Virus record (IMG/VR): IMGVR_UViG_3300010318_000048
Span: 1 to 24,093 of that record
Source: a virus
Reading direction: 5' to 3' (one strand)
Length of the DNA: 24,093 nt
Each line of letters starts with the position of its first letter. The stretch's first letter is position 1. A program made the translations under genes and the position numbers. The notes beneath the pieces are model-generated. The model was not told the origin of the DNA. It was given only the letters and a program-made list of their open reading frames with translations, and searched no databases. Shown one piece after another: positions 1 to 17,339 of the stretch.

Positions 1-921
1 ACCAAGAGTTCCAGAAATACCTTGAATTCCTTGAATTCCTTGAATTCCTTGAATTCCTTGAATACCCTGTTCTCCTTGAGAACCAAGAGTTCCAGAAATA
101 CCTTGAATTCCTTGAATTCCTTGTAATCCTTGTAATCCTTGTAATCCTGTACCTTGAATTCCTTGAATTCCTTGAATTCCTTGTAATCCTTGTAATCCTT
201 GAATACCTTGGAATCCTTGAAGACCTGTGCCAGTTACTCCCTGAAGACCTTGTATTCCTTGAATTCCTTGAATTCCTTGGATACCTTGAATTCCCTGTTC
301 TCCTTGAATTCCTTGTAATCCTTGCTCTCCAGTTATTCCTTGTAATCCTTGTAAACCTTGTGTTCCTTGAGAACCAAGAGTTCCAGAAATACCCTGGATA
401 CCCTGGATACCTTGAGTACCCTGAATTCCTTGAATTCCTTGGATACCTTGAATTCCCTGTTCTCCTTGAATTCCTTGTAATCCTTGGAATCCTTGAATAC
501 CTTGGAATCCTTGAAGACCTACTCCTAAAATACCCTGGATACCCTGGATACCTTGAGTACCCTGGATACCTTGAGTACCCTGGATACCTTGAGTACCCTG
601 GATACCTTGAATTCCTTGAATTCCTTGAGTACCCTGAATTCCTTGAATTCCTTGAAGACCTATATCACCTTGAATTCCTTGAATTCCTTGAGTACCTTGT
701 TCTCCAGTTGTTCCTTGAGTACCTTGAAGACCTAAATCACCTTGAATTCCTTGAATACCTTGAATTCCCTGAATTCCCTGAGGTCCTATACCACCCTGAA
801 TTCCTTGTATACCCTGTTCTCCTTGGATACCCTGAATTCCTTGAAAACCCTGAATTCCCTGAATACCTTGAATACCTTGAATACCTTGAGTACCTTGAAT
901 ACCTTGAGTACCTTGAGGTCC
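1..921 (-). repeat. 9-nt collagen-coding tandem repeat tract
   Basis: The dominant unit is GGNATTCAA (Gly-Ile-Gln) on the minus strand, with variants for GTQ, GLQ and GFQ. Where Gly is GGA and is followed by ATT CAA, each unit creates a GAATTC palindrome, and I count about 29 of these between 1 and 860. Larger blocks also recur: a segment coding GISGTLGSQGEQ or a close variant appears near 1-25, 73-105 and 365-393. This suggests growth by slippage and unequal recombination. Confidence 0.9.
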
Positions 922-2020: not shown

Positions 2021-5000
2021 TTATTGTTGAAGTGCTATAATTAAGGGAGTAACTTCTGCTTGTAAACTCTTACTAAATGCTTGACCACGAATTGTTCCAG
2101 TATTTTGATTGATAGTAATACCTTCACTAATTTTGAAGTTTCCTCCTTGATCTGTGCTTGTAAATGGCACTTGACCACCATTTGTAGCAACAATTTCATT
2201 TTCTACGATTGGAACTGCTCCTTTTGAAGGAATAGCATTAACAATATTTATACCAGTTCCAATGTATTCAAATGTTATGCTACTTGCAATAATTTTACTT
2301 GATTGGAAAAATTGAATAGTATTTCCAATACTAACTGGATAGGTAATGAATTCATCAAACGTTATATTTGTTGTTCCTCCGGCAGAAACAGGAGTGGATC
2401 CTGTTGGTCTGAAGAATAATTTTTCAAGAACAACTTCTGCAGTTGCAGTAGTTCCATTTGGATCAGGTGGAGCAGAAATATTAATTACTGGATGATCACC
2501 ACCTGTTTCGTATCCAGTTCCAGATACGATAACAGTAATTTCAGTAATAGATCCAATACCACTACTTACATTTTCTGGGACAACTACAGCCTGTGCAGGA
2601 ACAAAGAAATCAGGATCTGGAGGTAGGTCTATTTGAACTTCAATTGGAACATTTGGATCATATCCAGATCCACCATCTATAATTTTAATAGAACTTACGA
2701 AGAAATATTGAGTTTCAATGATTGAAATTTGTCCATCATAGGGTCTTTGACCTTTTGGAAGAATTAATGCTGGTGCTGCATCTGTACCAATTCCAATAAT
2801 ACTTGTTATAATTCCAGCTCTATTTACTATGAAGTCATTTATTAATGGTGAGTAAAGTTTAGTGTTATCTGTAACCTGTGGGAATGTTCCAACACCTGTT
2901 TGATATTGATCAGGAACAGATATATTTTGAATAATAAATGTAGATATTCCAGCGATATGTTCTATTGCTGCAATTTCAGCATCTTTAACATATCCAGTAT
3001 CAAAACCTACTGGTCTTGTAGATTTTTCTCCAAGATAAGTTAAAGATCCATCAGGAGAATCTCTATACGAAAGTCCTGCCTCAATTGAATTTCCATTACC
3101 AAGAGTCAATATATCCGATGCAATTTTTTCTACAATTATCTTAGAATCTCTCCTACATAATTCTCTACCTTTTGAAGATCCACCGTAATCAAAATTAGGA
3201 CCTAAAGCTCCAAAAGGACCATCAGTGCTTGTTAAAAATCCTACAACTTCTGATGCGATAAAATCTTTATTTAAACGAAGAAGACTTACAGAGTCAATAA
3301 ACTCTTGAGATGCTCCAGCACCAACGTTAATTGTAAGAGTATCAATATTATCTACATCAGGAACAGAAGTTACCTCTGCAACATACTGTAATGGAGTTGC
3401 TCCATTTGAAACAAGTCCAAAATTACCAAAACTAGAGTTACTGTTGTTTAAATCACAAACACCGCCACTATCACAGAAAACAGCAGTATCACAACAAATA
3501 GTAAATAGAGAAACTAACTGAGCATATCCAAAGTTAGTTATCGAAACACCAATTCCACCTTGATTATATTGTGTATATGCATCAAGAACCATTGATTTAA
3601 ATCCACCGGCACGACTTCCATCAATTCTCATTCCAATACTATCTGGAACAAAATTGGTACAGTTTTGAACGTATGGAGATTGCCAATTTTCTTCAGTACC
3701 ATCAGCAAATCCAAATCCCTGTGTAGGGAATGATATCATTGCTTTACCTGGATTACTTTCACCTACAAATGATTGCTCTGCTACATAACATCCTCTCTTT
3801 ATATAATATAAATCTGTCTTATGTCTAGTTGAAACAAGAGTTCTTCTTAGATCTTCTCCAACAACAGCGACTCTTTCATTTAAACTAATTGGAGCATCTT
3901 CAATATAAAGACCAGCAAAAACTTTAATCGTATCTCCTGGTTCTGCAACTGATGCCGCTTTCTTAATAGTTAAAAATGCATCTCCTGGACTATCTCCACT
4001 ATTTAAATCGCTACCAAATTTGTTAACAAAATATTCATTTCCAATTAAAGGTCCTGGTGCTTTCCACTCTAATTCTCCTGATGGTAGATTTGTACTAATT
4101 CCAGTACCATCGAGTCCATTATTATTTACGATTGTTGTTACAATTCCTACAGCAGTATGAATTGCAGATACAACATTTGCACATCCTGCAGGATTTTGAT
4201 TACTATCACCATCTGCTGTTATTGTAAGATCTTTTAATTGGAAAACAGTAGTAATTCCAGATTGAAATGATTTAGGAGGAGTAGAATTATTGACAATAAG
4301 CTGTGCATAATATGCTATAGAACTAATTCCAGCAAGTGTTGCAAATTTTACATATCCTCCTGGGAATCCAGAAAGTCCTGATGGTGCTGGACTAGTTGAT
4401 TCTAAAAAGTTTCCTAAAGTATATGATACTCCTGCTCCAACAGATTGTGAGTTACCACCTCTAGTAATGTCAAAAGCAACTGCATCAATAATAATTCCAA
4501 GATCTCTCTTACATTTCGCTCTTCCAGTTTCTACTCCGACTGGACCATAATCAAAGTTTGGTCCAGATATACCAAATAGACCATCTGTCGATGTAATAAA
4601 ACCTACAATTTCTTCAGTAATAAATTCTTTATTTCTTACTAATAGATTTGCAGCATCAAAAAATCTATCAGTAATTCCTGGATTTCCTTTCGATGAAAGA
4701 ACAGAGAAAGCATATCCAACGTGATTATTTGCATCAATAATTTCTCCACGAACTCTTAAATCTCCAGCAACATCTAAAGTTCTAGTTGGTATTGTTGTTC
4801 CGATACCAACAATTGGTTCAATATTTTTTACTAAACTATCATCTAATGCAAAAACTGAAGTTATACCAAGACTCTCAAATTTAGCTAGTGTTGCTCCAAT
4901 ACCAACATCTAATTTATTTGTAGTTGTAATTCCAGTAACAAGAAGATTTTCAATTTCCGAATCAATTACATCTTCTCTGAAAATAGTTGCAACTCCGATG

Positions 5001-6397
5001 AAAGCATCAGTTATAGTTGCAAATCCTACAGTTCCAACTCCGATGAAAGCATCAGTTATAGTTGCAAATCCTACAGTTCCAACTCCGATGAAAGCATCAG
5101 TTATAGTTGCAAATCCTACAGTTCCAACTCCGATGAAAGCATCAGTGATTGTTGCAAACCCAATTGTAGATACACCTACAAATTCATTAGTGATTGTAGC
5201 GAATCCTACAGTAGCAACTCCAATGAAAGCATCCGTAATAGTTGCAAAACCAACTGTAGCAACTCCGATGAAAGCATCAGTGATTGTTGCAAACCCAATT
5301 GTAGATACACCTACAAATTCGTTTGTAATAGTTGCAAAACCAACTGTAGCAACTCCGATGAAAGCATCAGTGATTGTTGCAAACCCAATTGTAGATACAC
5401 CTACAAATTCGTTTGTAATAGTTGCAAAACCAACTGTAGCAACTCCTATAAATGCATCCGTAATAGTAGCAAAACCAATAGTAGAAACACCTACAAATTC
5501 GTTTGTAATAGTTGCAAAACCAACTGTAGCAACTCCTATAAATGCATCCGTAATAGTTGCAAACCCAATTGTAGAAACACCTACAAATTCATTAGTAATA
5601 GTTGCAAAACCTACAGTAGCAACTCCTATAAATGCATCAGTAATAGTAGCAAAACCAATTGTAGATACACCTATAAATGCATCAGTGATTGTTGCAAACC
5701 CAATTGTAGAAACACCTACAAATTCATTAGTAATAGTTGCAAAACCTACAGTAGCAACTCCTATAAATGCATCAGTAATAGTAGCAAAACCAATTGTAGA
5801 AACACCTACAAATTCATTAGTGATTGTAGCGAATCCAACTCTCAATTCTCCATTAATATCTAAATCAAACTCTGGTTCAAAAGTATTAATACCAACTAAA
5901 CCCTCACCAGTAATTACAAAATCAGTGTCAGTTTCAGTAGATTTTAATTCAAAATCATATATTGGTTCTTCAACTCCAACACCTATAAATCCTTGTTCAT
6001 TAATATATACTCCTTCTTTACCATTATTTACTTGAAATTTTTGTATAGGATTTGTTACTCCAATACCAAAACTTCCAAATCCTGTAGCTACAATTATAGA
6101 ACTTCCAGATGATACTTGTAAAAGTTGTACTGGATTAGTAGTTCCAATTCCAACACCAGTAGAAAATATTCCTACACCTCTTACGTCTAGTTCTTGAAGT
6201 GGTACTGTTGTACCAATTCCAACGTCACGATTAACTAATAGATCTGCATCACCATATACAGTTCCATAAACATCTAATTTGTAGTCAGCATCCGTATCTC
6301 CTATTGCAACATTTTTATCTACAGCATTAGCGTATAGAGTATCTGTTCCAACACCTAAACCAACTTTAACTTTGAAAAAATTGTCTAGTATTGACAT
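2021..6397 (-). CDS. Giant modular tail fibre protein, 1458 aa, with 15-residue repeats and beta-helix
   Basis: Modules in order: residues 1-186 carry VGIGTT-x-P-x-x-x-LDV fibre motifs; 187-471 hold nineteen 15-residue repeats (VGFATITDAFIGVAT / VGFATITNEFVGVST types); 472-580 return to VGIGTT motifs; 582-712 and 1036-1167 are two diverged copies of one domain (both contain EFI/DFI, GPNFDYG, and CKRD/CRRD); 786-1000 is a pectate-lyase-like parallel beta-helix; 1240-1322 holds GGSGY/SGTGY beta modules; the end (1370-1458) is the TSTDQGGNFKI...TPLIIALQ module. These parts indicate a long trimeric adhesin on the virion. The beta-helix and C-terminal module are shared with the upstream 1698-aa protein. 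Its promoter overlaps that gene's stop codon. The exact fibre type (long tail fibre or other) cannot be told from sequence alone. Confidence 0.85.
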   Translation of the reverse strand: MSILDNFFKVKVGLGVGTDTLYANAVDKNVAIGDTDADYKLDVYGTVYGDADLLVNRDVGIGTTVPLQELDVRGVGIFSTGVGIGTTNPVQLLQVSSGSSIIVATGFGSFGIGVTNPIQKFQVNNGKEGVYINEQGFIGVGVEEPIYDFELKSTETDTDFVITGEGLVGINTFEPEFDLDINGELRVGFATITNEFVGVSTIGFATITDAFIGVATVGFATITNEFVGVSTIGFATITDAFIGVSTIGFATITDAFIGVATVGFATITNEFVGVSTIGFATITDAFIGVATVGFATITNEFVGVSTIGFATITDAFIGVATVGFATITNEFVGVSTIGFATITDAFIGVATVGFATITNEFVGVSTIGFATITDAFIGVATVGFATITDAFIGVATVGFATITNEFVGVSTIGFATITDAFIGVGTVGFATITDAFIGVGTVGFATITDAFIGVGTVGFATITDAFIGVATIFREDVIDSEIENLLVTGITTTNKLDVGIGATLAKFESLGITSVFALDDSLVKNIEPIVGIGTTIPTRTLDVAGDLRVRGEIIDANNHVGYAFSVLSSKGNPGITDRFFDAANLLVRNKEFITEEIVGFITSTDGLFGISGPNFDYGPVGVETGRAKCKRDLGIIIDAVAFDITRGGNSQSVGAGVSYTLGNFLESTSPAPSGLSGFPGGYVKFATLAGISSIAYYAQLIVNNSTPPKSFQSGITTVFQLKDLTITADGDSNQNPAGCANVVSAIHTAVGIVTTIVNNNGLDGTGISTNLPSGELEWKAPGPLIGNEYFVNKFGSDLNSGDSPGDAFLTIKKAASVAEPGDTIKVFAGLYIEDAPISLNERVAVVGEDLRRTLVSTRHKTDLYYIKRGCYVAEQSFVGESNPGKAMISFPTQGFGFADGTEENWQSPYVQNCTNFVPDSIGMRIDGSRAGGFKSMVLDAYTQYNQGGIGVSITNFGYAQLVSLFTICCDTAVFCDSGGVCDLNNSNSSFGNFGLVSNGATPLQYVAEVTSVPDVDNIDTLTINVGAGASQEFIDSVSLLRLNKDFIASEVVGFLTSTDGPFGALGPNFDYGGSSKGRELCRRDSKIIVEKIASDILTLGNGNSIEAGLSYRDSPDGSLTYLGEKSTRPVGFDTGYVKDAEIAAIEHIAGISTFIIQNISVPDQYQTGVGTFPQVTDNTKLYSPLINDFIVNRAGIITSIIGIGTDAAPALILPKGQRPYDGQISIIETQYFFVSSIKIIDGGSGYDPNVPIEVQIDLPPDPDFFVPAQAVVVPENVSSGIGSITEITVIVSGTGYETGGDHPVINISAPPDPNGTTATAEVVLEKLFFRPTGSTPVSAGGTTNITFDEFITYPVSIGNTIQFFQSSKIIASSITFEYIGTGINIVNAIPSKGAVPIVENEIVATNGGQVPFTSTDQGGNFKISEGITINQNTGTIRGQAFSKSLQAEVTPLIIALQQ
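4985..5839 (-). repeat. Nineteen tandem 45-bp coding repeats (855 bp)
   Basis: Nineteen in-frame units of exactly 45 bp encode residues 187-471 of the fibre. Two unit types alternate for most of the tract (DAFIG-type and NEFVG-type), giving a 90-bp super-repeat. The 90-bp blocks 5241-5330 and 5331-5420 are identical, and three identical 45-bp copies stand at 4991-5125. Units nearer the protein N-terminus differ in synonymous codons, so the C-terminal-side copies look like the most recent expansion. Confidence 0.95.
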
Positions 6398-6423: not shown

Positions 6424-6431
6424 TATTTATG
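6424..6431 (-). promoter_or_regulatory. T4-type late promoter (CATAAATA) for the 1458-aa fibre
   Basis: The minus-strand octamer CATAAATA matches the T4 late consensus at 7 of 8 positions. It overlaps the TAA stop of the 1698-aa gene (6427-6429) and ends 26 nt before the next ATG, in the only gap between the two large fibre genes. A GGAG ribosome site (AATGGAGCAG) lies between it and the ATG. Confidence 0.55.
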
Positions 6432-9400
6432 AAACTCTTATTATAAAAGCTAAAGCATAATATGGTGGAAGATTTTTCCCGACTCCAGACTCACCCCTAT
6501 CAAGGACTGCAATGTTAGTAAGGTTTGGTGAAGCCTGTCCTTCTACTGAATTTACTGAATCCCCTTGCCAATCATCATCAATAATATTTGCTAAAGCAGC
6601 ATTTATATCAGAAGCAAGATCTGGTGGTAGTGCTCTTCCTGATAATCCGTGAGAGTGACCTTCATCATTTAAACCATCTCTAATATCATGATTGTGTTCA
6701 ACAACAACTGCATCTGCTGAACCACCAGTATCATTTGGATTGTAATTACTTCCAGCACCAACAATAAATCTATCTCTTAAGTCAGGTCTACCATCAACTC
6801 CATCACATAATTCCCATCCAGTTAGAGTTGATATCTCGCTAACTGATCCAGACCACATAACAATTCCACCAATAGGTATTGTTCCTTGACCAACAAATGT
6901 AGTTGCAGTAACAATTCCTGAAGAATTTATATTTTTAGAATTTATTTGTTCATTAACAATTAAATTTTCAGTTGTTATTGTTTTTAAAACCTCTAGAGTA
7001 TCTGCAGTAATTTTTGCAGTAGAAGCATCTAATTCAGAAGCTACTATAAATTTTGTTACCTCTAATTCATCAGAAAAAGTTGTTTTACCACTATTAATAT
7101 TTTCAGTTGCAGGAACTGATATAGAAACCTCTTCTCCAGTTAGAGCATTAATTCTCTTCCTACCAATAAAGAATTCTCCATCACTATTCATTCCAGTATA
7201 TAAAACTAATCCACCTTTACTAGGTAAAGCTTGAGAAATTAAAGATTCATCCTCACTTAAAACTCTATCCTGATTTGTTGGTAATCCTGTAGAATAATTA
7301 CCTGGACCAAATCCAGTGTATTCAAATGTGTGTCCTGAAGCACGTAGAATTGAATTTCTTCTCAATTCTATTGGAAGTGGATTTATTTTTCTGACTAAAA
7401 CATTTGGCTTATGTTCAGATGGTTTTGTATTAAATAATCCTCTAACTATATTTAAAGTAGATCCTGCTATGGAGGATATATACATAATTTCTTCTTCAAC
7501 TTGTATATAATCTCCAGGGAAAAATCCTAAGGATGATATAAGTCTAAATGAAGTATCATTAGAAGAAAGTTCACCAGAAGCACTAGTGGAAGATCTAACA
7601 TAAACTCCAGTGAATAGTGGATATTGTCTAGATGATAAATTTTCTGCTGAAGAATTACTATCTCTGAATGATGGAGATAATGATACTTCGTAAACATTGT
7701 CACCATTTTGAAGAGATGATATGGAAGATGCATCTGCATCAGTTTTAAATACCCTTAAAGTTGATGTTGAAACTACATTAAATGATTTATTAATACGTGG
7801 GAAATAAACTTTACTTCCAACAGTGAATGAATTTCTTTTATCTGTTGTTATTTTTCCGTCTGTATCGATAGAAGAAATAGTATTTCTTGCTCCTGATGGT
7901 ATAAAAATTGCTGGTGAACCGGATTCATCAGATCCAGATGAATTTTTATAAGTAATTGTATTAGGAGTTATACTTACAATTTCAAAAAATCCATTGTTTT
8001 CATTATGTTTTGCATTAAATATTTGAATACCATCGGCAGGATTGTTTAAAACAGAATCTACTCTCAATACAGCCACTGCACCTTCTGTTGATGTATGTGG
8101 AATTCCCCTAACTTGGACAATACTTTCTTGTTCATATCCACTTCCAGGGTAAGAAACATTTGCACTAGTTACTTCTCCACCACTAACAGTTATATCAACT
8201 TTTGCCCCTCTACCTATAGTAGAAGAATCATTAGGACAAACTGGTATATCATACCAAGTCCCATCTATAAAACCAGTTGCAGATTGAGCAGATAAGGTGG
8301 CAATTTGTTGAATACCTCTTAATCCGTGATTAATTTCTGTAGTTAAAGTACAATTTGATCCTGATAAATTTATATTAGTAACTTTATTAGAAAGTCCATA
8401 ATCTTTTAAGAATTCTATAGTCGATTCTTTTGTAGTACTATTTTCGATATCATTAACTTCTACTTTTCCAATAGTTTTTCTAGATGCAACTGTACTTGTT
8501 TCTAGAGGATCTGCTATAGGATTATCTACATCAATTTGAGGATATAGATTTTCAATACTTTGGGAGAATTTTATACTTGAGTCATTGAAAGGAGATACAG
8601 ATGGAGTATTTGTAAAAGAATTTAAAGTTGCGTAATAAACACCATCCGAAGATCCTGGAGAAAATTCTTGAATAGTATCAACTTTAAAGCATTGATATGC
8701 TGATGGAACTTCCTTACAAATAAAATAAGGAAGATTACTTCTAGAACTAGAATCAACTGTATATGGTGGAGATCTGAAAGTTGAAGAATCACAATTTCCT
8801 TGATCTAACCAATTACTTGCAGATCCAGAAACAGTTGAAATTCCACCAGGACTTACACCGCTTGGTAAAGAATATGAAAACTGAGTTTCGCTCTCAACAG
8901 AAGAAACTCTAAATGATCCATTGAATCCAGTTCCTGATCCTAATCCAACTGGGTTTGGTTCATTATCGCTTTTTAAATTATAAACTTCAACTAAACTATT
9001 TACACTCAATTTATGTGGATTTCTTGTAATTACATTTGCAGTTCCTGAGGATTCCCAAGCATCTATAATTATATTTTTATTTCTAAATTCTTTTAGTGAT
9101 GTTAATTCTTGATCCGAAGAATATACAGAAGATAAATCTGAAGAAGTATTTTGAATAATGAATCCTGTAGTTGGTTTGGAAGCATTTTCAAATTCTTTAG
9201 GAATTACTATCCTTGCCCTGTAGGACTTATCATCGTCAGAACGAGTATCAATTATTCTCTTCAATGAGAAAATATAATCTTGATCTAAATTAGATATAAA
9301 ATTACTATTTGCTTCTATTTCAATATACCATTGACTTTCAGTATCATCCCATTTAATTGGTGATGCAACATCATTTGGTAATCTATCTTTTACCCTTGTT

Positions 9401-11523
9401 ACTAATTTTAAATTTTCATTAGCAACACCAGTTTCATTTTTTATATCTAAAACAACATTACTAGTTGAGTTTAAAAAATTGGATGAAATTTTTAAAGTAT
9501 TGTTAACTGCATCAATGTCATTGTTTACAAAATAAACTTTGTTTGGTTCTAGTCCATCTGGAAGATCACCATCTTTTGATATTACTCTAACCTTTTGACT
9601 AGTGCTAATACCAGAGTTAGTTCCAACATCAAAACTTGAAGATAATGTTATAGTTCCATCTGTTGTATCAATACTACTAATATTAAATTCTAATTTATTA
9701 TTTGGGGAAATTGTAGCTGAGTATTCAGTTCCAGATGCACGATAAAAAATTTGATCAGAATCTTTTGCACCAACAGTAAAATTTCTAAATTTATTGCTTG
9801 GAGGATCTAATAAACTATTAAAATCTTTTAAGTATACTCTTGTGTTACCATTTGCAGATGCTTGAGCAGTAGTAACTGTACGATCAATTGCAATACATCT
9901 AATTTCATCTTCATTAATAGAAATTTCTTTTGGAGGTATGATATGTGTAATGTAACCACAATTATCTTTAGGTAATGTAAAGTCTCTAAAACCATCAGAG
10001 AATAAAGAAATTGCTCCAAAGTTTGAATTAGAATTCGTTATAGATTGATCTCCACCACTTTCAGCAATAAATTGTTTTGCATATCCAATTGCGAAAATAC
10101 TTACACACTGAATAAAGGCATTATTAGAAACTTTTATATGATAGCTTTCATACTCTGGACGATATCTTGATTTGGAATCTTGATATAAAAATTTACTAGT
10201 TCCAAATGCACTTTGGAACTGATAAGTTCCAGTATCCTCATCATATAAAACAAAAGCATTATTATCTTTTTGTAAAGAGATTCCAGTGAACTGAGCTGTA
10301 ACCATGCTCTTGAATCCAGTAGCCTTAGATCCATCTGCGTGAAGTCCACACATTCCAAAAACAGATCTTAGACTACAATTGAATACATATGGAGATGCTG
10401 ATGATACAGTATCAGATACTATAGTAACAGAACTTCCATCATCACCAGAAACTATTGTAGGATTTAAAGACGATAGTGGTGTATTAGGAACTCTGTAAGT
10501 AAAGACTGTATCACTAACAATCTGAGATACAGTAAAAGGTCCATTGTATTCTGCTCTCTGTTCATCACTTCCACCAACATTAGATATTAAAATTGCAGCA
10601 AATGGAGATAATCCGTGATCAGTAGTTGTAGTTACAGTAATAACATTAGTACCATTTGAACCATCTCCTGAAACTACACTAGAAATTTCAATAGATCCTT
10701 GACCTAAATCACCTACAATTTTATTTTCTTCTGGATTTGGTTGGAGGTTATCATAACCATCGATGATATTTGGAGATCCAGCAGCATTTCCATATCCTAA
10801 ACTGATCTTATAATAATACATTTCAAGATCAGTTTTATTGAGATCAACTCCACCTTTTTTCTGTTTATTTTTACCATCAGCGTATTCAAAAGCTGTTAAT
10901 TTATGGTGAGAATATGATGGTACAACTTGTGCTGTTGAAGATGGATTTGAAAAAACTGCTCCGTTAGGATCACCGTCTAATATACTAAATCCAAAAATAT
11001 AACATCCACCAGTTAGTCTGAAAATTGCAGATCTATCAATTAAATCATCACTTGGATTTGGTACATACTTAGGACGAATTTTTGTTTTTCTTATATCTTC
11101 TGCAACAATTGAAACTCCTCTAGGAACTATAACACCACCTTCTATACTATTATAAGTATATAAAACATTATTAGGATCCTCAATATCAAAATTACTTTCC
11201 AATGAAAGTTCTTCAATTGCTGTTATAGATCCAGAAAAAGTTTTAATTGTTGTTTCTTCTACATAATAACCTGGACGATTATCAATATAATGATCTCCAG
11301 GAGAAAGAACGATTGTAGTTTGATTAAATATATCGTTATTTACGCCAGTTAAATAGGAAAATCTAACAGCTTCAAGTAAAGCTCTTTGAATTGTTTTGAA
11401 TGGCCTTATAGCAGAGTTACCTCTATTGTCAATAGAATCTGTTGCATCTAACTGCCCCGAATCTACATAGAGAACAGTGCCCTTTAAATTTTTCAGAAAA
11501 TTTTCTAATCTAGCTAAAGCCAT
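6427..11523 (-). CDS. Giant beta-helix fibre protein, 1698 aa, with C-terminal tail-collar/receptor-tip domain
   Basis: The N-terminus (MALARLENFLKNLKGTVLYV) leads into a pectate-lyase-like parallel beta-helix over about residues 1-520, with the paired phrases ATGFKSM and NSNSNFG that recur in the 1458-aa protein. A long stretch of beta repeats follows, including a YPGSGY module and an HTFEYTGFGPG...ALPSKGG module. Residues 1545-1698 are a phage tail collar domain: WELCDG, PDLRDRF, TGGSADAV, then HNH (1610-1612) and HSH (1623-1625), ending LPPYYALAFIIRVS. Collar domains occur at T4 gp12 and related fibre tips. Their paired HxH motifs bind metal in T4 gp12 and gp37, so metal binding here is likely but inferred. 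It is first in the fibre operon, with its own late promoter. It is probably a baseplate-attached adhesin. Confidence 0.85.
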   Translation of the reverse strand: MALARLENFLKNLKGTVLYVDSGQLDATDSIDNRGNSAIRPFKTIQRALLEAVRFSYLTGVNNDIFNQTTIVLSPGDHYIDNRPGYYVEETTIKTFSGSITAIEELSLESNFDIEDPNNVLYTYNSIEGGVIVPRGVSIVAEDIRKTKIRPKYVPNPSDDLIDRSAIFRLTGGCYIFGFSILDGDPNGAVFSNPSSTAQVVPSYSHHKLTAFEYADGKNKQKKGGVDLNKTDLEMYYYKISLGYGNAAGSPNIIDGYDNLQPNPEENKIVGDLGQGSIEISSVVSGDGSNGTNVITVTTTTDHGLSPFAAILISNVGGSDEQRAEYNGPFTVSQIVSDTVFTYRVPNTPLSSLNPTIVSGDDGSSVTIVSDTVSSASPYVFNCSLRSVFGMCGLHADGSKATGFKSMVTAQFTGISLQKDNNAFVLYDEDTGTYQFQSAFGTSKFLYQDSKSRYRPEYESYHIKVSNNAFIQCVSIFAIGYAKQFIAESGGDQSITNSNSNFGAISLFSDGFRDFTLPKDNCGYITHIIPPKEISINEDEIRCIAIDRTVTTAQASANGNTRVYLKDFNSLLDPPSNKFRNFTVGAKDSDQIFYRASGTEYSATISPNNKLEFNISSIDTTDGTITLSSSFDVGTNSGISTSQKVRVISKDGDLPDGLEPNKVYFVNNDIDAVNNTLKISSNFLNSTSNVVLDIKNETGVANENLKLVTRVKDRLPNDVASPIKWDDTESQWYIEIEANSNFISNLDQDYIFSLKRIIDTRSDDDKSYRARIVIPKEFENASKPTTGFIIQNTSSDLSSVYSSDQELTSLKEFRNKNIIIDAWESSGTANVITRNPHKLSVNSLVEVYNLKSDNEPNPVGLGSGTGFNGSFRVSSVESETQFSYSLPSGVSPGGISTVSGSASNWLDQGNCDSSTFRSPPYTVDSSSRSNLPYFICKEVPSAYQCFKVDTIQEFSPGSSDGVYYATLNSFTNTPSVSPFNDSSIKFSQSIENLYPQIDVDNPIADPLETSTVASRKTIGKVEVNDIENSTTKESTIEFLKDYGLSNKVTNINLSGSNCTLTTEINHGLRGIQQIATLSAQSATGFIDGTWYDIPVCPNDSSTIGRGAKVDITVSGGEVTSANVSYPGSGYEQESIVQVRGIPHTSTEGAVAVLRVDSVLNNPADGIQIFNAKHNENNGFFEIVSITPNTITYKNSSGSDESGSPAIFIPSGARNTISSIDTDGKITTDKRNSFTVGSKVYFPRINKSFNVVSTSTLRVFKTDADASSISSLQNGDNVYEVSLSPSFRDSNSSAENLSSRQYPLFTGVYVRSSTSASGELSSNDTSFRLISSLGFFPGDYIQVEEEIMYISSIAGSTLNIVRGLFNTKPSEHKPNVLVRKINPLPIELRRNSILRASGHTFEYTGFGPGNYSTGLPTNQDRVLSEDESLISQALPSKGGLVLYTGMNSDGEFFIGRKRINALTGEEVSISVPATENINSGKTTFSDELEVTKFIVASELDASTAKITADTLEVLKTITTENLIVNEQINSKNINSSGIVTATTFVGQGTIPIGGIVMWSGSVSEISTLTGWELCDGVDGRPDLRDRFIVGAGSNYNPNDTGGSADAVVVEHNHDIRDGLNDEGHSHGLSGRALPPDLASDINAALANIIDDDWQGDSVNSVEGQASPNLTNIAVLDRGESGVGKNLPPYYALAFIIRVS

Positions 11524-11591: not shown

Positions 11592-12356
11592 ATGGCAATC
11601 AGTACTCAAACTCAAGACTTAATTAACTTTTACAATCAAAAGAAATCTTTAGATAGTAAGCAAATAGAACAGATCAATTTTGTACAAAAAGGATATACTT
11701 TAAAAACAGGTATTGGGGAAACTGAAACACTTAGGATTTGGGGTCAAGATGAAATTATAGATAACTATACATTTTCAATTAAAAAATTAGACACTAAAAT
11801 ATTAGAACTAAATTCTGATATTGTTGTATTGCAAAGAGAAATTTTAGATTTAGGTGAAGCTGCAAATGCAGTTGGTTGCGGAACAACTGGAATTTTTGAA
11901 GATAGTCCACCAGGGTTTACAACAGTCACTGTATTTAAGGATCAACTCAAATATAAGGGATATACTTATAGTGGAGATAATCCATTTGAAGGAACTGAAG
12001 GTGATATTACTTCAGAAAATATTGGAATAGGAACTTTCAATGAAGTTGTACAAGTTTCTATAGGAAGTTATTTTGGACCAATTAATCAATGTAATGGTTT
12101 ACTTTGCTTAATACCTTCTAATTCTTGTGCAGGATATGCAGATTCAATATCAGAATTAGAAAATCAAATTCCGCCAATAAGAAATGAAAGGGATGATTTA
12201 ATTGAAACTGTAAATTTTTTAAAGAAAGGTAGATCTGATTATGAACTTCAAAACTATTCATATGAACAAGCTAAATCAGAAATCAATGCATCTATTCAAT
12301 CAAGTAATAATATTTTAGAAGTACTTAATGATCCAGAAAATGATGAATTTTTATAA
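11592..12356 (+). CDS. Uncharacterised 254-aa phage protein, probable coiled-coil structural protein
   Basis: I do not recognise the family. Residues 1-90 are largely helical, with heptad-like stretches (TKILELNSDIVVLQREILDL). Residues 95-180 form a glycine- and cysteine-containing beta-like insert (Cys96, Cys167, Cys172, Cys179; GYTYSGDNPFEGTEGD). Residues 183-245 are again helical and charged (SISELENQIPPIRNERDDLI). Two helical arms around a compact head suggest a folded-back coiled-coil hairpin, as in some fibre chaperones or virion rods; this is inference. It is the only rightward gene between the fibre and hub operons, has its own late promoter, and stops two bases from the 3' end of the convergent tRNA gene. 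No signal peptide or membrane segment is seen. Confidence 0.75.
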   Translation: MAISTQTQDLINFYNQKKSLDSKQIEQINFVQKGYTLKTGIGETETLRIWGQDEIIDNYTFSIKKLDTKILELNSDIVVLQREILDLGEAANAVGCGTTGIFEDSPPGFTTVTVFKDQLKYKGYTYSGDNPFEGTEGDITSENIGIGTFNEVVQVSIGSYFGPINQCNGLLCLIPSNSCAGYADSISELENQIPPIRNERDDLIETVNFLKKGRSDYELQNYSYEQAKSEINASIQSSNNILEVLNDPENDEFL

Positions 12357-12357
12357 G

Positions 12358-12442
12358 TGCGAGTAGGGAGACTTGAACTCCCACGACCGCAATGGTCAAC
12401 AGATTTTAAGTCTGGTGCGTCTACCGATTCCGCCATACTCGC
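12358..12442 (-). tRNA. tRNA-Leu(UAA)
   Basis: Folding the minus strand gives a full class II tRNA of 85 nt. The acceptor stem is GCGAGTA/TACTCGC with discriminator A. The anticodon loop is CTTAAAA, giving anticodon UAA. A long variable arm has a GACC/GGTC stem, and the T arm is GGGAG/CTCCC around TTCAAGT. CCA is not encoded. It reads UUA leucine codons, which are frequent in AT-rich phage genes. It lies tail-to-tail with the 254-aa gene, with one base between. Phage tRNA-Leu genes are common in marine T4-like phages. Confidence 0.95.
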
Positions 12443-12729: not shown

Positions 12730-13428
12730 CTAGAATGGGTGGTTGGCAAGCCTATTGGACAGTTCCTGAACTGTCTCCTTGAGTGCTGAGATTTGATCTT
12801 GCTGTTCCTTTATTGCCTCGACTAAAAGACCAGTAAGGTTTCCATATTCTATTGTCTTTAATTTATTATCTTCTATCATTTCTTCAACTACAACTTCTGG
12901 AATTATTTTTTCAACTTCTTGTGCAATTAAACCAATAGAACTTTTCTGAGATTTTGCTCTTTGTGGAACTACTTCAGAATTCCAACCAAAGGAAACTCCC
13001 TGCAATCTTAGGACTTTTTCTAGTGAACTTTCAAGTGGTTTAATATTAATTTTTGCACTTTTATCCGATGGGCAAGGAGCACATATATTTGAACCATTAT
13101 ATGTAAAAAATCCATTTAATTTTCCAAGAGGTGAGGATAAACTTATTTTAGGTGAAGCACTAATGCTTTTTGGTTGTGCTTTAACTTCACCACCAACTGC
13201 AGTTTTGAAACCAATTAAAGATGTAAGTCCATTTAAAAGGTGTGCTCCTACACCTTGATGAACTCCGATTTGTTGATGAGCACCAACAAAATTTGAAACT
13301 CCCCAATTCTGAGCAGAGAATGGTTTTGTTGGATCTAAAGATGGCCAAATATCTATTGATGATACTGGTGGTACTGGAGCATCCCCAATTTGAACAATTC
13401 CAGATTGTAATTGATCGATGTAAGACAT
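12730..13428 (-). CDS. Small virion protein with C-terminal S74 intramolecular chaperone (self-cleaving)
   Basis: Of 232 aa, residues 121-230 match the peptidase S74 / intramolecular chaperone domain. It begins SDKSAKINI, with the expected Ser121 and Lys126 dyad at the +5 spacing known from endosialidase-type chaperones. It continues with IGLIAQEVEKIIPEVV and YGNLTGLLVEAIKEQQDQIS, then a terminal coiled coil. Cleavage before Ser121 would leave a 120-aa mature piece. That piece holds a glycine-rich stretch with histidines six residues apart (His51, His57, His63 in GAHQQIGVHQGVGAH) and ends NGFFTYNGSNICAPCP. S74 domains drive trimer folding of fibres and spikes and are then removed. It starts two bases after the beta-helix spike gene, so a spike-tip or hub-attached trimer is likely (inference). 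No key catalytic residue is missing. Confidence 0.85.
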   Translation of the reverse strand: MSYIDQLQSGIVQIGDAPVPPVSSIDIWPSLDPTKPFSAQNWGVSNFVGAHQQIGVHQGVGAHLLNGLTSLIGFKTAVGGEVKAQPKSISASPKISLSSPLGKLNGFFTYNGSNICAPCPSDKSAKINIKPLESSLEKVLRLQGVSFGWNSEVVPQRAKSQKSSIGLIAQEVEKIIPEVVVEEMIEDNKLKTIEYGNLTGLLVEAIKEQQDQISALKETVQELSNRLANHPF

Positions 13429-13430
13429 TT

Positions 13431-13982
13431 TTATACTATATCAAAAAGTAAGTTTTCTACTATTTTATTAAAAAGTCCCGAAAGACTTGTTGGAATTAAT
13501 GGAGAATTTCCTGATGAAATAGATGTTATATCTGAGGTAAAAATACCACCTCTAGAACGAATAACCATCTTATTCCTTGCACCAATTCCAACATTAGAAC
13601 CTGTAATTTTTAAAGTATCACCAGCGTCCATTCTTATATTTGAATTTGACTTTATAATAAAATCACTTTTTTGATTTGTTGCTTCAAATGCAATTTCACT
13701 TGCCTTTACTGTAAATTTACCTTCAGTTCTAATATCAATGTCTCCGCCATTTTCAGATACAATTTTTAGACCTTGACTTTGACGACTTACGATATGATCT
13801 GCTAGATCATCAGGTTTTAATGGTTTTTGACTTTGAATTTCAAATCCACCATTTTCAAATAACTTTACAGTTGCTCCAGATGTTGAACTAATTTGTACTT
13901 GTCTTTTTCTATTGGAGTCATCCTCTCCAATATAAATCGTTCCAAATTCTGGATCATTAAATACAAATCCGTCTTTACTCAT
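13431..13982 (-). CDS. Central spike (gp5 C-terminal beta-helix-like) protein, 183 aa
   Basis: The protein is rich in short, regularly spaced beta strands: VQISSTSGATVKLFENGGFEIQ, then phrases such as GGDIDIRTEGKFTVKASEIAF, SDFIIKSNSNIRMDAGDTL and VGIGARNKMVIRSRGGI. This is the pattern of the triple-stranded beta-helix of T4 gp5C and related tail spikes, here encoded apart from the hub gene. Together with gp5 and gp27 it should form the membrane-piercing needle. I chose the ATG at 13980-13982 over an upstream GTG at 13994, because GGAG sits just upstream (GTGGAGAAGATAATG). The start overlaps the gp5 stop by eight bases, implying translational coupling. Confidence 0.8.
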   Translation of the reverse strand: MSKDGFVFNDPEFGTIYIGEDDSNRKRQVQISSTSGATVKLFENGGFEIQSQKPLKPDDLADHIVSRQSQGLKIVSENGGDIDIRTEGKFTVKASEIAFEATNQKSDFIIKSNSNIRMDAGDTLKITGSNVGIGARNKMVIRSRGGIFTSDITSISSGNSPLIPTSLSGLFNKIVENLLFDIV

Positions 13983-16032
13983 TATCTTCTCCACAAAGAA
14001 CTACGTTATTGACTTTAGTGGTATCAGTTTCAACAAAAGCAAAATCTTTGACAGATGTTGGATCTGATGGTTTATTATTAAATTTAAGCACTGGTAAAAG
14101 AACTGCTCCTTGACCATTCTCACTATTTATCTGAAGTTCTGGGAATACTCTAATTGCTGTTCCTGGATTTCTAATAGTTGCGGAAATAATTCTTCCTTCA
14201 TCATCAACATTCGCAACCAAATCAATATCAGTATTACAAGAAGAATCGGATATTTTATCTGAATTTGTATATCCAAATCCAGGTTCTACAACAATTACTT
14301 CATCTATTGTTCCAAATACTTCTGATCCATTTTCAGTTACTGGATTTACATCACAAGCAGTTTTTGATTCTATATCCAATTGAGATTGGGATCCTAGATA
14401 ATTTAATCCTGGATCTGTAATTATAATTTTTTCAACTTCTCCTGAACTATTAATTCTAGAAACTGCTTTAACTCCACTACCTAAGTTGCAAGGATCATCA
14501 AATGAAATTAAAGGATTGGAATCATACCCAACACCACCACTCAATACATTAACTCCAATGATTTGACCAAGTGAATTAACAACAGATTCTCCAGATGCAC
14601 CAAATCCTCCACCACCAAAAATTGAAACTTTTGGAATAATACAATTTAAATTTGTAACGCTACAATCTCCAGTTTGGTCTATGTCCCCCAAAAATGAAGA
14701 TATGCCTGCTTTCGCATCTTCTGACAAATTTCTTATTCCTTGAGAAGCAGAGAAATTAACTACATTTTTAAATCCTTCGCCCGGTTCTGGTAAAAATCCT
14801 TTATTTAATTCATAAGCATATTGCTGAGTACATTGATTTTCTTCACAAGATAAGAAAGTAACAGCACTTGCAGAAGCATTAATTACTTGCTCTAAAATAG
14901 ATAATACTGTAGGGATAGTTCCATTTAGAGATGATGTAACTTCATCTAAAGTATCTTGAATAGAATCAGTAATTTCATTTACAGCTGATCCTAAAATAGT
15001 TCCTAAAAATGCCTCAGCAGCACATACAGGAAAACTTATAATATCTTCAAAGATATTGAAGAGAAAATCAAAAATAAACTTAGAGATTTTTTTTGCAACT
15101 TTTTCAAATACACACCATATTTGCTTAACTGCTTGATCAGCAGCAAGTTCTTTAATAGATTTAAGATTTGCTGGAAGTAAATTATCTAAAAATTGTTTTA
15201 AAAGTTTGTAGATAATAGAGATAATTCTATCTCTAACTCGTTTAAGTATAAAAATAATCAAATCAGCAATTGCATCTGCAATTAATTTGATTTCACTTTG
15301 AATATTAGTAATTTGATTTAAAACTGGATTCACGTAAAAATTAATTGCATCTTTAACAGTATTTGCAATCCTTATAAAATTTCTAAGAAGATTTGTAATT
15401 CTAGATAAAGTTCCAGAAGAAGTCTCACATTTTAAAATTGGTTCAACAAAAACTCCGGAGACTTCACATTTTGCACCTAGAATAGTTTGTTTTTTCTTTC
15501 TTTCCTTATCAATTACTTTACCATCCTTAGAAGAAGCACCTCTATCTGCACCAGTATTTTCATTTGAAGGAGATATTGGAGTTGTTGCTGGAGGTATAAT
15601 CTTTTTAGGACTAGGAGAAAATGGATTAAATTCAGAAGTTCCTTGAGATAATATCCTATTCCAAGTTAAAACAGATTCAATATCTGATCCAGAATAAAAA
15701 GCACCAACAATTACTGGTTGTTGACCATCATCCCCATCTAAAAAGAATCCAAATACAGTGCTTCCTGGTTGTACAGATCCAAGAGCAGAATAGTTTCCCT
15801 CACCAGTACCAAGACTGGGTGGAACTAAAACGTGAGCCCAAGGAAGATCTTCATCACGAACTCTATTATCAGCAGGATGATAACCAAGAATTCTAACCTT
15901 ACAACGGAGTCCACCTCTTGCCTCTTCAATCTCATTTACATTTGAGACATTTGGAGCAATCTGTCCAATAAACCATTTAAAACCATCTCTTCCTGCAAAA
16001 TTAGGATTAATTAACGTATTTTCTAACATCAT
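13975..16032 (-). CDS. 5: Baseplate hub subunit gp5-like (OB domain, no lysozyme), 685 aa
   Basis: Residues 1-118 are the gp5 OB-fold: GLRCKVRILGYHP, LPWAHVLVPPSLGTGEGNYS, then GFFLDGDDGQQPVIVGAFYSG. T4 gp5 continues with a lysozyme domain and beta-helix; neither is present. A low-complexity linker (135-180) is followed by a long hydrophobic, amphipathic helical region (210-400). Residues 485-650 then carry four repeats of a beta module (GGVGYDSNPLISF, PGLNYLGSQSQLDI, PGFGYTNSDKI, NPGTAIRVFPELQI). Ten cysteines are scattered after residue 185, in three groups. The start overlaps the gp27 stop (ATGATG). The family call rests on the OB domain and on position between gp27 and the spike. The middle helical part is unusual for a hub protein and its job is unknown. 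Confidence 0.85.
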   Translation of the reverse strand: MMLENTLINPNFAGRDGFKWFIGQIAPNVSNVNEIEEARGGLRCKVRILGYHPADNRVRDEDLPWAHVLVPPSLGTGEGNYSALGSVQPGSTVFGFFLDGDDGQQPVIVGAFYSGSDIESVLTWNRILSQGTSEFNPFSPSPKKIIPPATTPISPSNENTGADRGASSKDGKVIDKERKKKQTILGAKCEVSGVFVEPILKCETSSGTLSRITNLLRNFIRIANTVKDAINFYVNPVLNQITNIQSEIKLIADAIADLIIFILKRVRDRIISIIYKLLKQFLDNLLPANLKSIKELAADQAVKQIWCVFEKVAKKISKFIFDFLFNIFEDIISFPVCAAEAFLGTILGSAVNEITDSIQDTLDEVTSSLNGTIPTVLSILEQVINASASAVTFLSCEENQCTQQYAYELNKGFLPEPGEGFKNVVNFSASQGIRNLSEDAKAGISSFLGDIDQTGDCSVTNLNCIIPKVSIFGGGGFGASGESVVNSLGQIIGVNVLSGGVGYDSNPLISFDDPCNLGSGVKAVSRINSSGEVEKIIITDPGLNYLGSQSQLDIESKTACDVNPVTENGSEVFGTIDEVIVVEPGFGYTNSDKISDSSCNTDIDLVANVDDEGRIISATIRNPGTAIRVFPELQINSENGQGAVLLPVLKFNNKPSDPTSVKDFAFVETDTTKVNNVVLCGEDNE

Positions 16033-17339
16033 TTTTGCTGTACTCCATAAGAATCTCTAATGAGTTTTAGTCCTGTATATCCTTTATTGTCATTAGCAGG
16101 AAAGGAATGTGCAAGTTCTTTTATTAAATAAAGACCAGACTTTTTCTCATCTCTTTCTTTTTCTTGTTTTGTAATCTTTCCTATATTTAACTCTATAACA
16201 TCTCCAACTGTAAGATTTAAATTAAGTGGTACTGTAAAATTTATAGTTTGACTGAAAGCAAGATTATATCTTGCTACTGATTGTGATTGATATTTTTCTT
16301 TCAAATCTCTCAAATCTCCTGATGGTGATAATTTATCCAAGGAGTAATTATCAATTAATTTTACCATAAGTCTTGAAGGAGAATTTTCAAGTCCATTTGG
16401 TATTTTCGGTTTTTCATTACTCTTTGATGAGTGTTTCATAATATCATAACTTTCAGTAAGTTTATAGTTATAAAAAGATGGAATACGAGTATTAACATCG
16501 TAGAAGTAATTCACACTTGAATACATTCCAATTCTTAAATTTTCAAAAATATTTACATTCTTTTCAAATTTAGGGATCGTTAAGATCTTAAAATTTTGAT
16601 CTTCAGAAGCAGGTGCATTAACATTCTCAGTATAAAAATATCTTTCATATTTTTTTGCATTTCCAGAACTTTCTTGCAATCCAGTTATTAAAGAATCTAC
16701 ACTTCTAAAATTGTATCCATTTTTGTTTTCATAAAATAAAAATCCGGCAGTTCCTGCAGTAGGTGAAGATTTTCCAATCTTAGGTATTGCCTTAGGACAT
16801 AACCAAGTCAAAACATTAAATGGTTTTTTAGAATTTCCGTAAAATGAGTAACTATTGAATGTTGGTTCTATATCTTTATTTTTAGTAGTTTTAAGAACAT
16901 CATCTAATATCTTTCTTACAGAGTCACTGATATTTTCTACTGAACCTTCTCTTTTTGGATAACGATTAAAAACTCTTGAAGTTTCATTTGTATACAATTC
17001 AGATGGAGCTAGTTCTACTAATAAAGTTTCTCTCGTAGATTGTGATGTAGATCCATAAACTTTGTAAATATAATATGTATTTTTTGTTTCATTAATAGTA
17101 ATTGATTTTTGAGTTGCTTCTTGATCAATTTTCAATCTAACTCTTTCTCCTCCTCTAACTGGAAGAGAAGACAAAAGTCCATCAGTATTTACAAGAACCA
17201 TAGAAATGAACACTGATGGTGAGAATAAATCTTCGTAATATTTTATTTCCGATATGCAACTAGTAGCATCAATAGAGCGAGATTGATCTAAAGACTCAAT
17301 TATAAATTCCTGAATTTTGTAATTAAAATATGATGCCAT
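16029..17339 (-). CDS. 27: Baseplate central hub protein gp27-like, 436 aa
   Basis: In T4, gp27 forms the trimeric ring that joins the tail tube to the gp5 spike. Here the N-terminus (NYKIQEFIIESLDQSRSIDA, then YEDLFSPSVFISMVLVNTDG) and the core (FNVLTWLCPKAIPKIG, then AGFLFYENKNGYNFRSVDSL) match my knowledge of gp27 proteins in marine T4-like phages. The C-terminus (LTVGDVIELNIGK, then SGLYLIKELAHSF) matches hub proteins more widely. The length is close to T4 gp27 (391 aa). Its ATG shares one base with the stop of the M23 protein, and its stop overlaps the gp5 start, so the hub partners are translationally coupled. No enzymatic motif is seen. Confidence 0.85.
   Translation of the reverse strand: MASYFNYKIQEFIIESLDQSRSIDATSCISEIKYYEDLFSPSVFISMVLVNTDGLLSSLPVRGGERVRLKIDQEATQKSITINETKNTYYIYKVYGSTSQSTRETLLVELAPSELYTNETSRVFNRYPKREGSVENISDSVRKILDDVLKTTKNKDIEPTFNSYSFYGNSKKPFNVLTWLCPKAIPKIGKSSPTAGTAGFLFYENKNGYNFRSVDSLITGLQESSGNAKKYERYFYTENVNAPASEDQNFKILTIPKFEKNVNIFENLRIGMYSSVNYFYDVNTRIPSFYNYKLTESYDIMKHSSKSNEKPKIPNGLENSPSRLMVKLIDNYSLDKLSPSGDLRDLKEKYQSQSVARYNLAFSQTINFTVPLNLNLTVGDVIELNIGKITKQEKERDEKKSGLYLIKELAHSFPANDNKGYTGLKLIRDSYGVQQK

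What the first reader, a model, noticed from the sequence alone, without database searches (positions are those of the whole stretch)
12730..13428. S74 self-cleaving chaperone on a tiny protein in the hub operon, with period-6 histidines
S74 domains usually end long fibres or endosialidases. Here the domain, with the intact Ser121/Lys126 dyad, is attached to only about 120 residues and lies next to the spike gene. The mature piece contains His51, His57 and His63 in near-repeats (GAH, GVH, GAH). In a trimer these could form three stacked histidine rings that bind metal, as histidines do in the fibre tip of T4 gp37 and in some spike tips. It may be an undescribed form of needle tip.
Basis: partly seen in the sequence, partly recalled or inferred. 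Interest (0 to 1): 0.6.

Follow-up and report, generated by a model that had tools for sequence, protein, structure and literature searches.

The report
Spike-tip protein with self-cleaving chaperone

Summary
The 232-aa ORF (window 13428-12730, minus strand) ends in an S74 intramolecular chaperone with Ser121/Lys126 and lies 2 bp behind a VgrG-like beta-helix spike gene ('A'), itself behind gp5. It is not a one-off. In IMG/VR loci fetched with gp5 alone, 46 of 80 carry such a short gene right after A: 41 with a different C-terminal domain ('FDIKHP'; cyanophage family phrog_17490, function unknown) and 5 with S74. On a gp5 tree the C-terminal domain switches 4-5 times. No locus has both this gene and PAAR, and none of five complete cyanophage genomes with it has PAAR, while PAAR occurs in relatives without it. 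Best reading: a trimeric spike tip used instead of PAAR, folded by an exchangeable C-terminal domain, which in the S74 form cuts itself off (position and cleavage inferred). His51/57/63 belong to a Gly-every-six repeat; they are not conserved (10, 10, 5 of 24) and share the polar face with Lys/Ser/Asn, so metal rings are unlikely. A better metal candidate is the C-terminus left by cleavage: CxxC or HxH in 15 of 27 tip proteins versus 0 of 94 other S74 ORFs.

The parts
12730..13428 (-). Protein B (the finding): 232 aa, N-terminal hexad-repeat part plus C-terminal S74 chaperone
   Evidence: homologues L001-L006, L045-L064, L098
13303..13428 (-). Residues 1-42: N-terminal region, W28 and W42 conserved in close homologues; possible docking part (inferred)
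13177..13302 (-). Residues 43-84: seven Gly hexads (G43, 49, 55, 61, 67, 73, 79), including His51/57/63
13240..13278 (-). His51 (13276-13278), His57 (13258-13260), His63 (13240-13242), variable polar hexad position
13069..13083 (-). Residues 116-120 CAPCP: predicted C-terminus of the mature piece after cleavage
13051..13068 (-). SDKSAK, residues 121-126: predicted scissile bond P120/S121 and Ser121-Lys126 dyad
   Evidence: invariant in 24 of 24 homologues
12733..13068 (-). Residues 121-232: S74 intramolecular chaperone with C-terminal helix 195-228
   Evidence: MyRF ICA 7dc3 Z 9.3; endosialidase chaperone 3gw6 Z 7.0
13431..13994 (-). Protein A: beta-helix spike, 187 aa, on which B is proposed to sit
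   Evidence: family profile matches VgrG-type spikes 7aef_q 4e-5 and 7b5h 1.5e-4
13975..16032 (-). gp5-like hub protein, OB fold (phrog_1922)
16029..17339 (-). gp27-like hub/tail protein (phrog_350)

Best explanation
B is a structural protein of the central puncturing device. Three copies fold together: residues 1-120 form a short, slender trimer built on a six-residue glycine repeat, and the C-terminal S74 domains hold the three chains in register. Once the trimer is formed, Ser121/Lys126 cut the chain before Ser121 and the S74 domains leave. The 120-residue trimer caps the beta-helix spike (protein A) below gp5, where other T4-like phages use the PAAR protein gp5.4. In related phages the same tip gene carries a different C-terminal domain (FDIKHP) instead of S74. 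SHOWN by sequence, synteny or fold: S74 fold and intact dyad, hexad repeat, constant gp5-A-B order, homology of the N-terminal part between the two C-terminal types, exclusion with PAAR in the sampled set. INFERRED: trimer, cleavage, departure of S74, location at the spike tip.
For: S74 family and fold; S-D-K invariant in 24 of 24; dyad and trimer-dependence known from MyRF/endosialidase. Gene order gp5-A-B with gaps of -9 to 16 bp in nearly all loci where B's N-terminal profile matches. Gp5-seeded survey, not chosen by B: 62 of 64 untruncated loci have A next to gp5; 41 FDI-B plus 5 S74-B of 80 loci, PAAR in 0; S-CREM2-type gp5 loci: PAAR in 25 of 80, B in 0. Complete genomes: PAAR in 0 of 5 with B; of 8 without B, 4 strongly and 2 more weakly. 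In S-N03, S-CRM01 and S-CREM2 PAAR lies in the same cassette, shortly after gp5 and the 300-350 aa spike-like gene. A profile built only from N-termini of S74 forms finds FDI-type cyanophage proteins at E 2e-9 in the set of fetched ORFs; L059 is a chimera. On the gp5 tree the S74/FDI label changes 5 times, at least 4 forced by starred branches. A matches VgrG-type spikes.
Against: No direct evidence that B is in virions: the S-SCSM1 record marks neither A nor B as a detected virion protein, although the spike gene's equivalent was detected in S-CREM2 (PMC10665884). N-terminus unresolved in the monomer model (pLDDT 28-59), so trimer and tip shape are not modelled. The PAAR/B exclusion follows two gp5 lineages, so it is not many independent events; P-SSM2 and S-SRM01 have neither, so a cap may be dispensable or of a further kind. 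The FDI domain resembles C-terminal domains of receptor-binding tailspikes (Z 8.1 and below), which would also fit a short fibre.
Confidence: 0.55

Rival explanations
1. B is a short receptor-binding or baseplate fibre encoded beside the hub, not the spike cap; S74 or the FDI domain folds it as it folds other fibres.
For: S74 elsewhere ends fibres; the FDI domain resembles small beta-sandwiches at the C-termini of Pam1 and Sf6 tailspikes and pyocin fibres (Z 8.1 to 5.7) and also occurs in long fibre-like proteins; in several gp5 loci the gene after A is a 1000-1800 aa protein.
Against: Mature piece only 118-175 residues, directly after the spike gene with almost no gap, never together with PAAR in the sampled set.
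Confidence: 0.25
2. One reading: three stacked histidine rings (His51, 57, 63) bind metal along the trimer axis.
For: The three His are real and lie at identical hexad positions; metals do stabilise spike apices (PMC10715212).
Against: Positions not conserved, 10, 10 and 5 of 24; polar face shared with Lys, Ser, Asn; no HxH there.
Confidence: 0.06
3. B stays uncut: S74 serves as a permanent trimer clasp, and the full 232-aa protein is the functional piece.
For: Cleavage cannot be tested here; the alternative FDI domain shows no S74 match and is probably kept (inference).
Against: Ser, Asp and Lys of the dyad region are invariant in 24 divergent copies, which argues for selected cleavage.
Confidence: 0.1

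Closest known systems
S74 intramolecular chaperones (endosialidase NF/K1F, T5 L-shaped tail fibre, MyRF ICA)
   Same: Pfam match, fold, Ser-Lys dyad at S(+5)K, C-terminal long helix
   Different: Attached to a 120-residue hub-operon protein instead of a long fibre, tailspike or transcription factor
phrog_17490 / phrog_28536 proteins of cyanophages (function unknown)
   Same: Same gene position after gp5 and A, homologous hexad-repeat N-terminal part
   Different: C-terminal domain is the FDIKHP all-beta domain, not S74
T4 gp5.4 and other PAAR spike caps
   Same: Proposed role and place: cap of a gp5/VgrG-type beta-helix spike
   Different: No PAAR sequence match; PAAR is one small monomer on a trimeric spike, B is expected to be a trimer; the two never occur together in the set examined
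Spike apices of P2 gpV, phi92 and R2 pyocin (Fe held by six His from three chains)
   Same: Candidate metal motif at the very C-terminus of a presumed trimeric needle; two relatives (L047, L059) have HxH there
   Different: Window protein has CAPC instead; here the end would be created by self-cleavage and the tip is a separate gene

Membership tests
Peptidase_S74 (PF13884) intramolecular chaperones | Profile match above the curated cut-off | tested here: met
   55.7 bits against 22
Peptidase_S74 (PF13884) intramolecular chaperones | Ser-Lys dyad, Lys five residues after Ser | tested here: met
   Ser121/Lys126, invariant in 24 of 24
Peptidase_S74 (PF13884) intramolecular chaperones | Fold of the chaperone domain | tested here: met
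   7dc3 Foldseek E 7e-6, Z 9.3; 3gw6 Z 7.0
Peptidase_S74 (PF13884) intramolecular chaperones | Trimerisation and self-cleavage before Ser | not testable with these tools
   needs expression or virion mass spectrometry
phrog_17490 tip-like family of cyanophages | Position directly after gp5 and A | tested here: met
phrog_17490 tip-like family of cyanophages | Homologous hexad-repeat N-terminal part | tested here: met
   N-terminal profile finds L040 at 2e-9, L039 at 6e-9 among fetched ORFs
phrog_17490 tip-like family of cyanophages | FDIKHP C-terminal domain | tested here: not met
   replaced by S74
PAAR / gp5.4 spike caps | PAAR_motif profile match | tested here: not met
   Pfam scan of B lists no PAAR
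HxH-iron spike apices (P2 gpV, phi92, R2 pyocin) | HxH motif at the apex (C-terminal end) | tested here: not met
   window has CAPCP; HxH only in relatives L047 and L059
HxH-iron spike apices (P2 gpV, phi92, R2 pyocin) | Bound metal on the three-fold axis | not testable with these tools
   needs structure or metal analysis

The most novel reading that the evidence does not exclude
Self-cleavage makes the sharp end: the cut before Ser121 leaves a new C-terminus, CAPCP here and HxH in two relatives, and three chains bring these together as a metal (or disulfide) apex on a separately encoded needle tip. The S74 domain would then both align the chains and uncover the apex, a third kind of spike cap beside PAAR and the built-in HxH-iron apex. 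CxxC or HxH stands at this place in 15 of 27 tip proteins and in 0 of 94 other S74 ORFs (relatedness not corrected).
Probability: 0.22. Interest if true: 0.68.

Novelty: new variant of a known kind. Interest (0 to 1): 0.5.

Why it matters
Contractile injection machines are thought to need a sharpened, metal-braced end, either PAAR or an HxH-iron knot. A large group of aquatic T4-like phages seems to lack PAAR and carries instead an uncharacterised gene in the spike operon with interchangeable folding domains. If it is the cap, it gives a function to a cyanophage family annotated only as hypothetical, and lets one test whether metal or chain alignment is what a puncturing tip requires.

Tried and rejected
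Isolate phages (50,697 records): no S74-type tip found; B's N-terminal part gave only weak FDI-type hits (best E 0.04) and that of L047 none. AlphaFold2 monomer: N-terminal 115 residues not resolved, so no check of His direction; trimers cannot be submitted. PDB sequence search with the FDI-type profile: nothing; fold matches of the FDI domain are suggestive only. Classical left-handed beta-helix hexads were considered from general knowledge and set aside because two hydrophobic positions flank the Gly here; not proven. Of the plus-strand ORFs overlapping B's region, the 87-aa one gives no Pfam match and the 69-aa one was not pursued. Virion proteomes: S-CREM2 has no B and S-SCSM1's record does not mark B as a virion protein, so no proteomic support. 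An early bias (loci fetched by B itself all carry B) was removed by the gp5-seeded survey.

Full report
WHAT IS THERE. The ORF lies on the minus strand, 13428 to 12730, 232 aa. Residues 121-180 match Peptidase_S74 well above its cut-off. The predicted chaperone part (pLDDT about 77-93 in most blocks) matches the MyRF ICA domain (Foldseek 7e-6, Z 9.3) and the endosialidase chaperone (Z 7.0). Ser121-Asp122...Lys126 is invariant in 24 of 24 homologues, with the S(+5)K spacing shown to be catalytic in endosialidase NF and MyRF, where cleavage requires a trimer (PMC8326128). The window is a 24-kb IMG/VR virus fragment with T4-type tail genes.

SURROUNDINGS. Downstream of the M23 peptidase protein and the gp27-like protein come gp5 (OB fold, phrog_1922), then A (187 aa), then B with a 2-bp gap. 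A's family profile matches spikes of contractile injection systems and VgrG (7aef_q 4e-5, 7b5h 1.5e-4), so A is read as the beta-helical spike encoded apart from gp5.

A FAMILY, NOT A ONE-OFF. Full-length relatives were found in IMG/VR (L001-L006; L045-L064 and L098). In cyanophages such as S-SSM7, S-8S56, DSL-LC03 and P-TIM68 the same slot holds phrog_17490-type proteins of unknown function. Their C-terminal domain is different ('FDIKHPxKEGHRLRHxCxEGPE'), but a profile made only from N-termini of S74 forms finds some of them (L040 2e-9, L039 6e-9, E-values for the small set of fetched ORFs). L059 is a natural chimera: an L040-like N-terminus with an S74 end. S74 and N-terminal identities to the window disagree between relatives (L046: N 35%, S74 68%; L003: N 53%, S74 56%). 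On a gp5 tree of 75 loci the S74/FDI state changes 5 times, at least 4 forced by well-supported branches. I conclude that one tip-like gene carries exchangeable C-terminal folding domains. The FDI domain resembles small beta-sandwiches at the ends of trimeric tailspikes and pyocin fibres (best Z 8.1), weak evidence that it too is a trimer domain.

RELATION TO PAAR. S-CREM2, S-N03 and S-CRM01 lack B and have PAAR in the hub cassette. Among 13 complete genomes, 0 of 5 with B have PAAR; of 8 without B, 4 have it clearly, 2 weakly, 2 (P-SSM2, S-SRM01) not at all. Twenty-eight B-bearing IMG/VR fragments have none. To avoid selection by B, loci were fetched with gp5 alone: window-type gp5 gave 80 loci, 41 with FDI-B, 5 with S74-B, 0 with PAAR; S-CREM2-type gp5 gave 80 loci, 25 with PAAR, 0 with B. 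This tracks two gp5 lineages and is not a count of independent events, but it is what a replacement of the cap would look like. T4 gp5.4 (PAAR) is the known tip of the gp5 spike (PMC4576200).

THE HISTIDINES. The period of six is real and general: all 35 unique homologues examined carry Gly hexads, 3 to 10 in a row, and the window's seven exceed every one of 100,000 shuffles. The residues just before and after Gly are hydrophobic (mean hydropathy 2.3 and 2.1); the His position (Gly+2) is polar (-1.6) and filled by H, K, S, N, T, Y. His51 and His57 are kept in 10 of 24, His63 in 5 of 24. I therefore read them as surface variants of the repeat, not as rings. Caveat: the T4 gp5 beta-helix has no well-defined hydrophobic core, so this in/out argument is not proof.

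WHERE A METAL COULD SIT. Published spike ends are braced by metal: Zn by His/Cys in PAAR, Fe by six His from three chains in P2, phi92 and R2 pyocin (PMC10715212). In B the residues directly before the scissile Ser, the C-terminus after cleavage, read CAPCP in the window. CxxC-type pairs (13) or HxH (2: L047 LHNH|S, L059 LHTH|S) occur there in 15 of 27 unique tip proteins, against 0 of 94 other S74 ORFs in the fetched loci, of which none has any His in the last ten residues and five have a Cys. CAPCP is shared by proteins with divergent N-termini (L046, L051, L052, L060), so it may have travelled with the S74 cassette; the counts are not corrected for descent.

MECHANISM, MARKED. Shown: S74 family, fold, dyad; hexad repeat; operon order; module exchange; PAAR exclusion in the sampled set. 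From known families: S74 domains trimerise and cut when the trimer is formed. Inferred: B is a trimer, is cut before Ser121, and sits on A as the cap. Not shown: presence in virions, metal, role in puncture. The strongest rival is a short baseplate or receptor-binding fibre.

VERDICT. Observation confirmed; metal-ring interpretation not supported; needle-tip idea plausible and strengthened; new variant of a known kind.

Noticed in passing
window 12730-13428 and L047:5971-6690, L059:5833-6678: CxxC or HxH directly before the S74 scissile Ser in 15 of 27 hub-tip proteins, never in 94 other S74 ORFs.
   Followed up: partly
window 4989-5840 (minus strand gene 2021-6397): Fibre-like protein of 1458 aa with about 19 tandem copies of a 45-bp unit (VGFATITDAFIGVAT...), grouped as a 135-bp higher-order repeat.
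   Followed up: no
window 16-916: About 100 copies of a 9-bp unit, about 50 of an 18-bp unit; looks like a collagen-like Gly-X-Y region cut by the window edge.
   Followed up: no
window 6427-11523, minus strand: 1698-aa fibre-like protein with HNH and GHSHG histidine motifs near its C-terminus and a collar-like sequence; no Pfam match at 0.01.
   Followed up: no
L212:9812-13183 (P-SSM2) and gp5-seeded loci such as L281, L284, L296: In some relatives the gene right after A is a 1000-1800 aa protein, and neither B nor PAAR is seen: what caps their spike is open.
   Followed up: partly
L207:18231-19046 and L211:6321-6989: PAAR-type cyanophages have a 222-271 aa protein of unknown kind between the spike gene and PAAR; the S-CREM2 copy has no Pfam match and is listed in the virion proteome.
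   Followed up: no
window 11592-12442: A 254-aa plus-strand ORF without significant Pfam or PHROG match next to a tRNA-Leu(taa) gene interrupts the minus-strand tail block.
   Followed up: no
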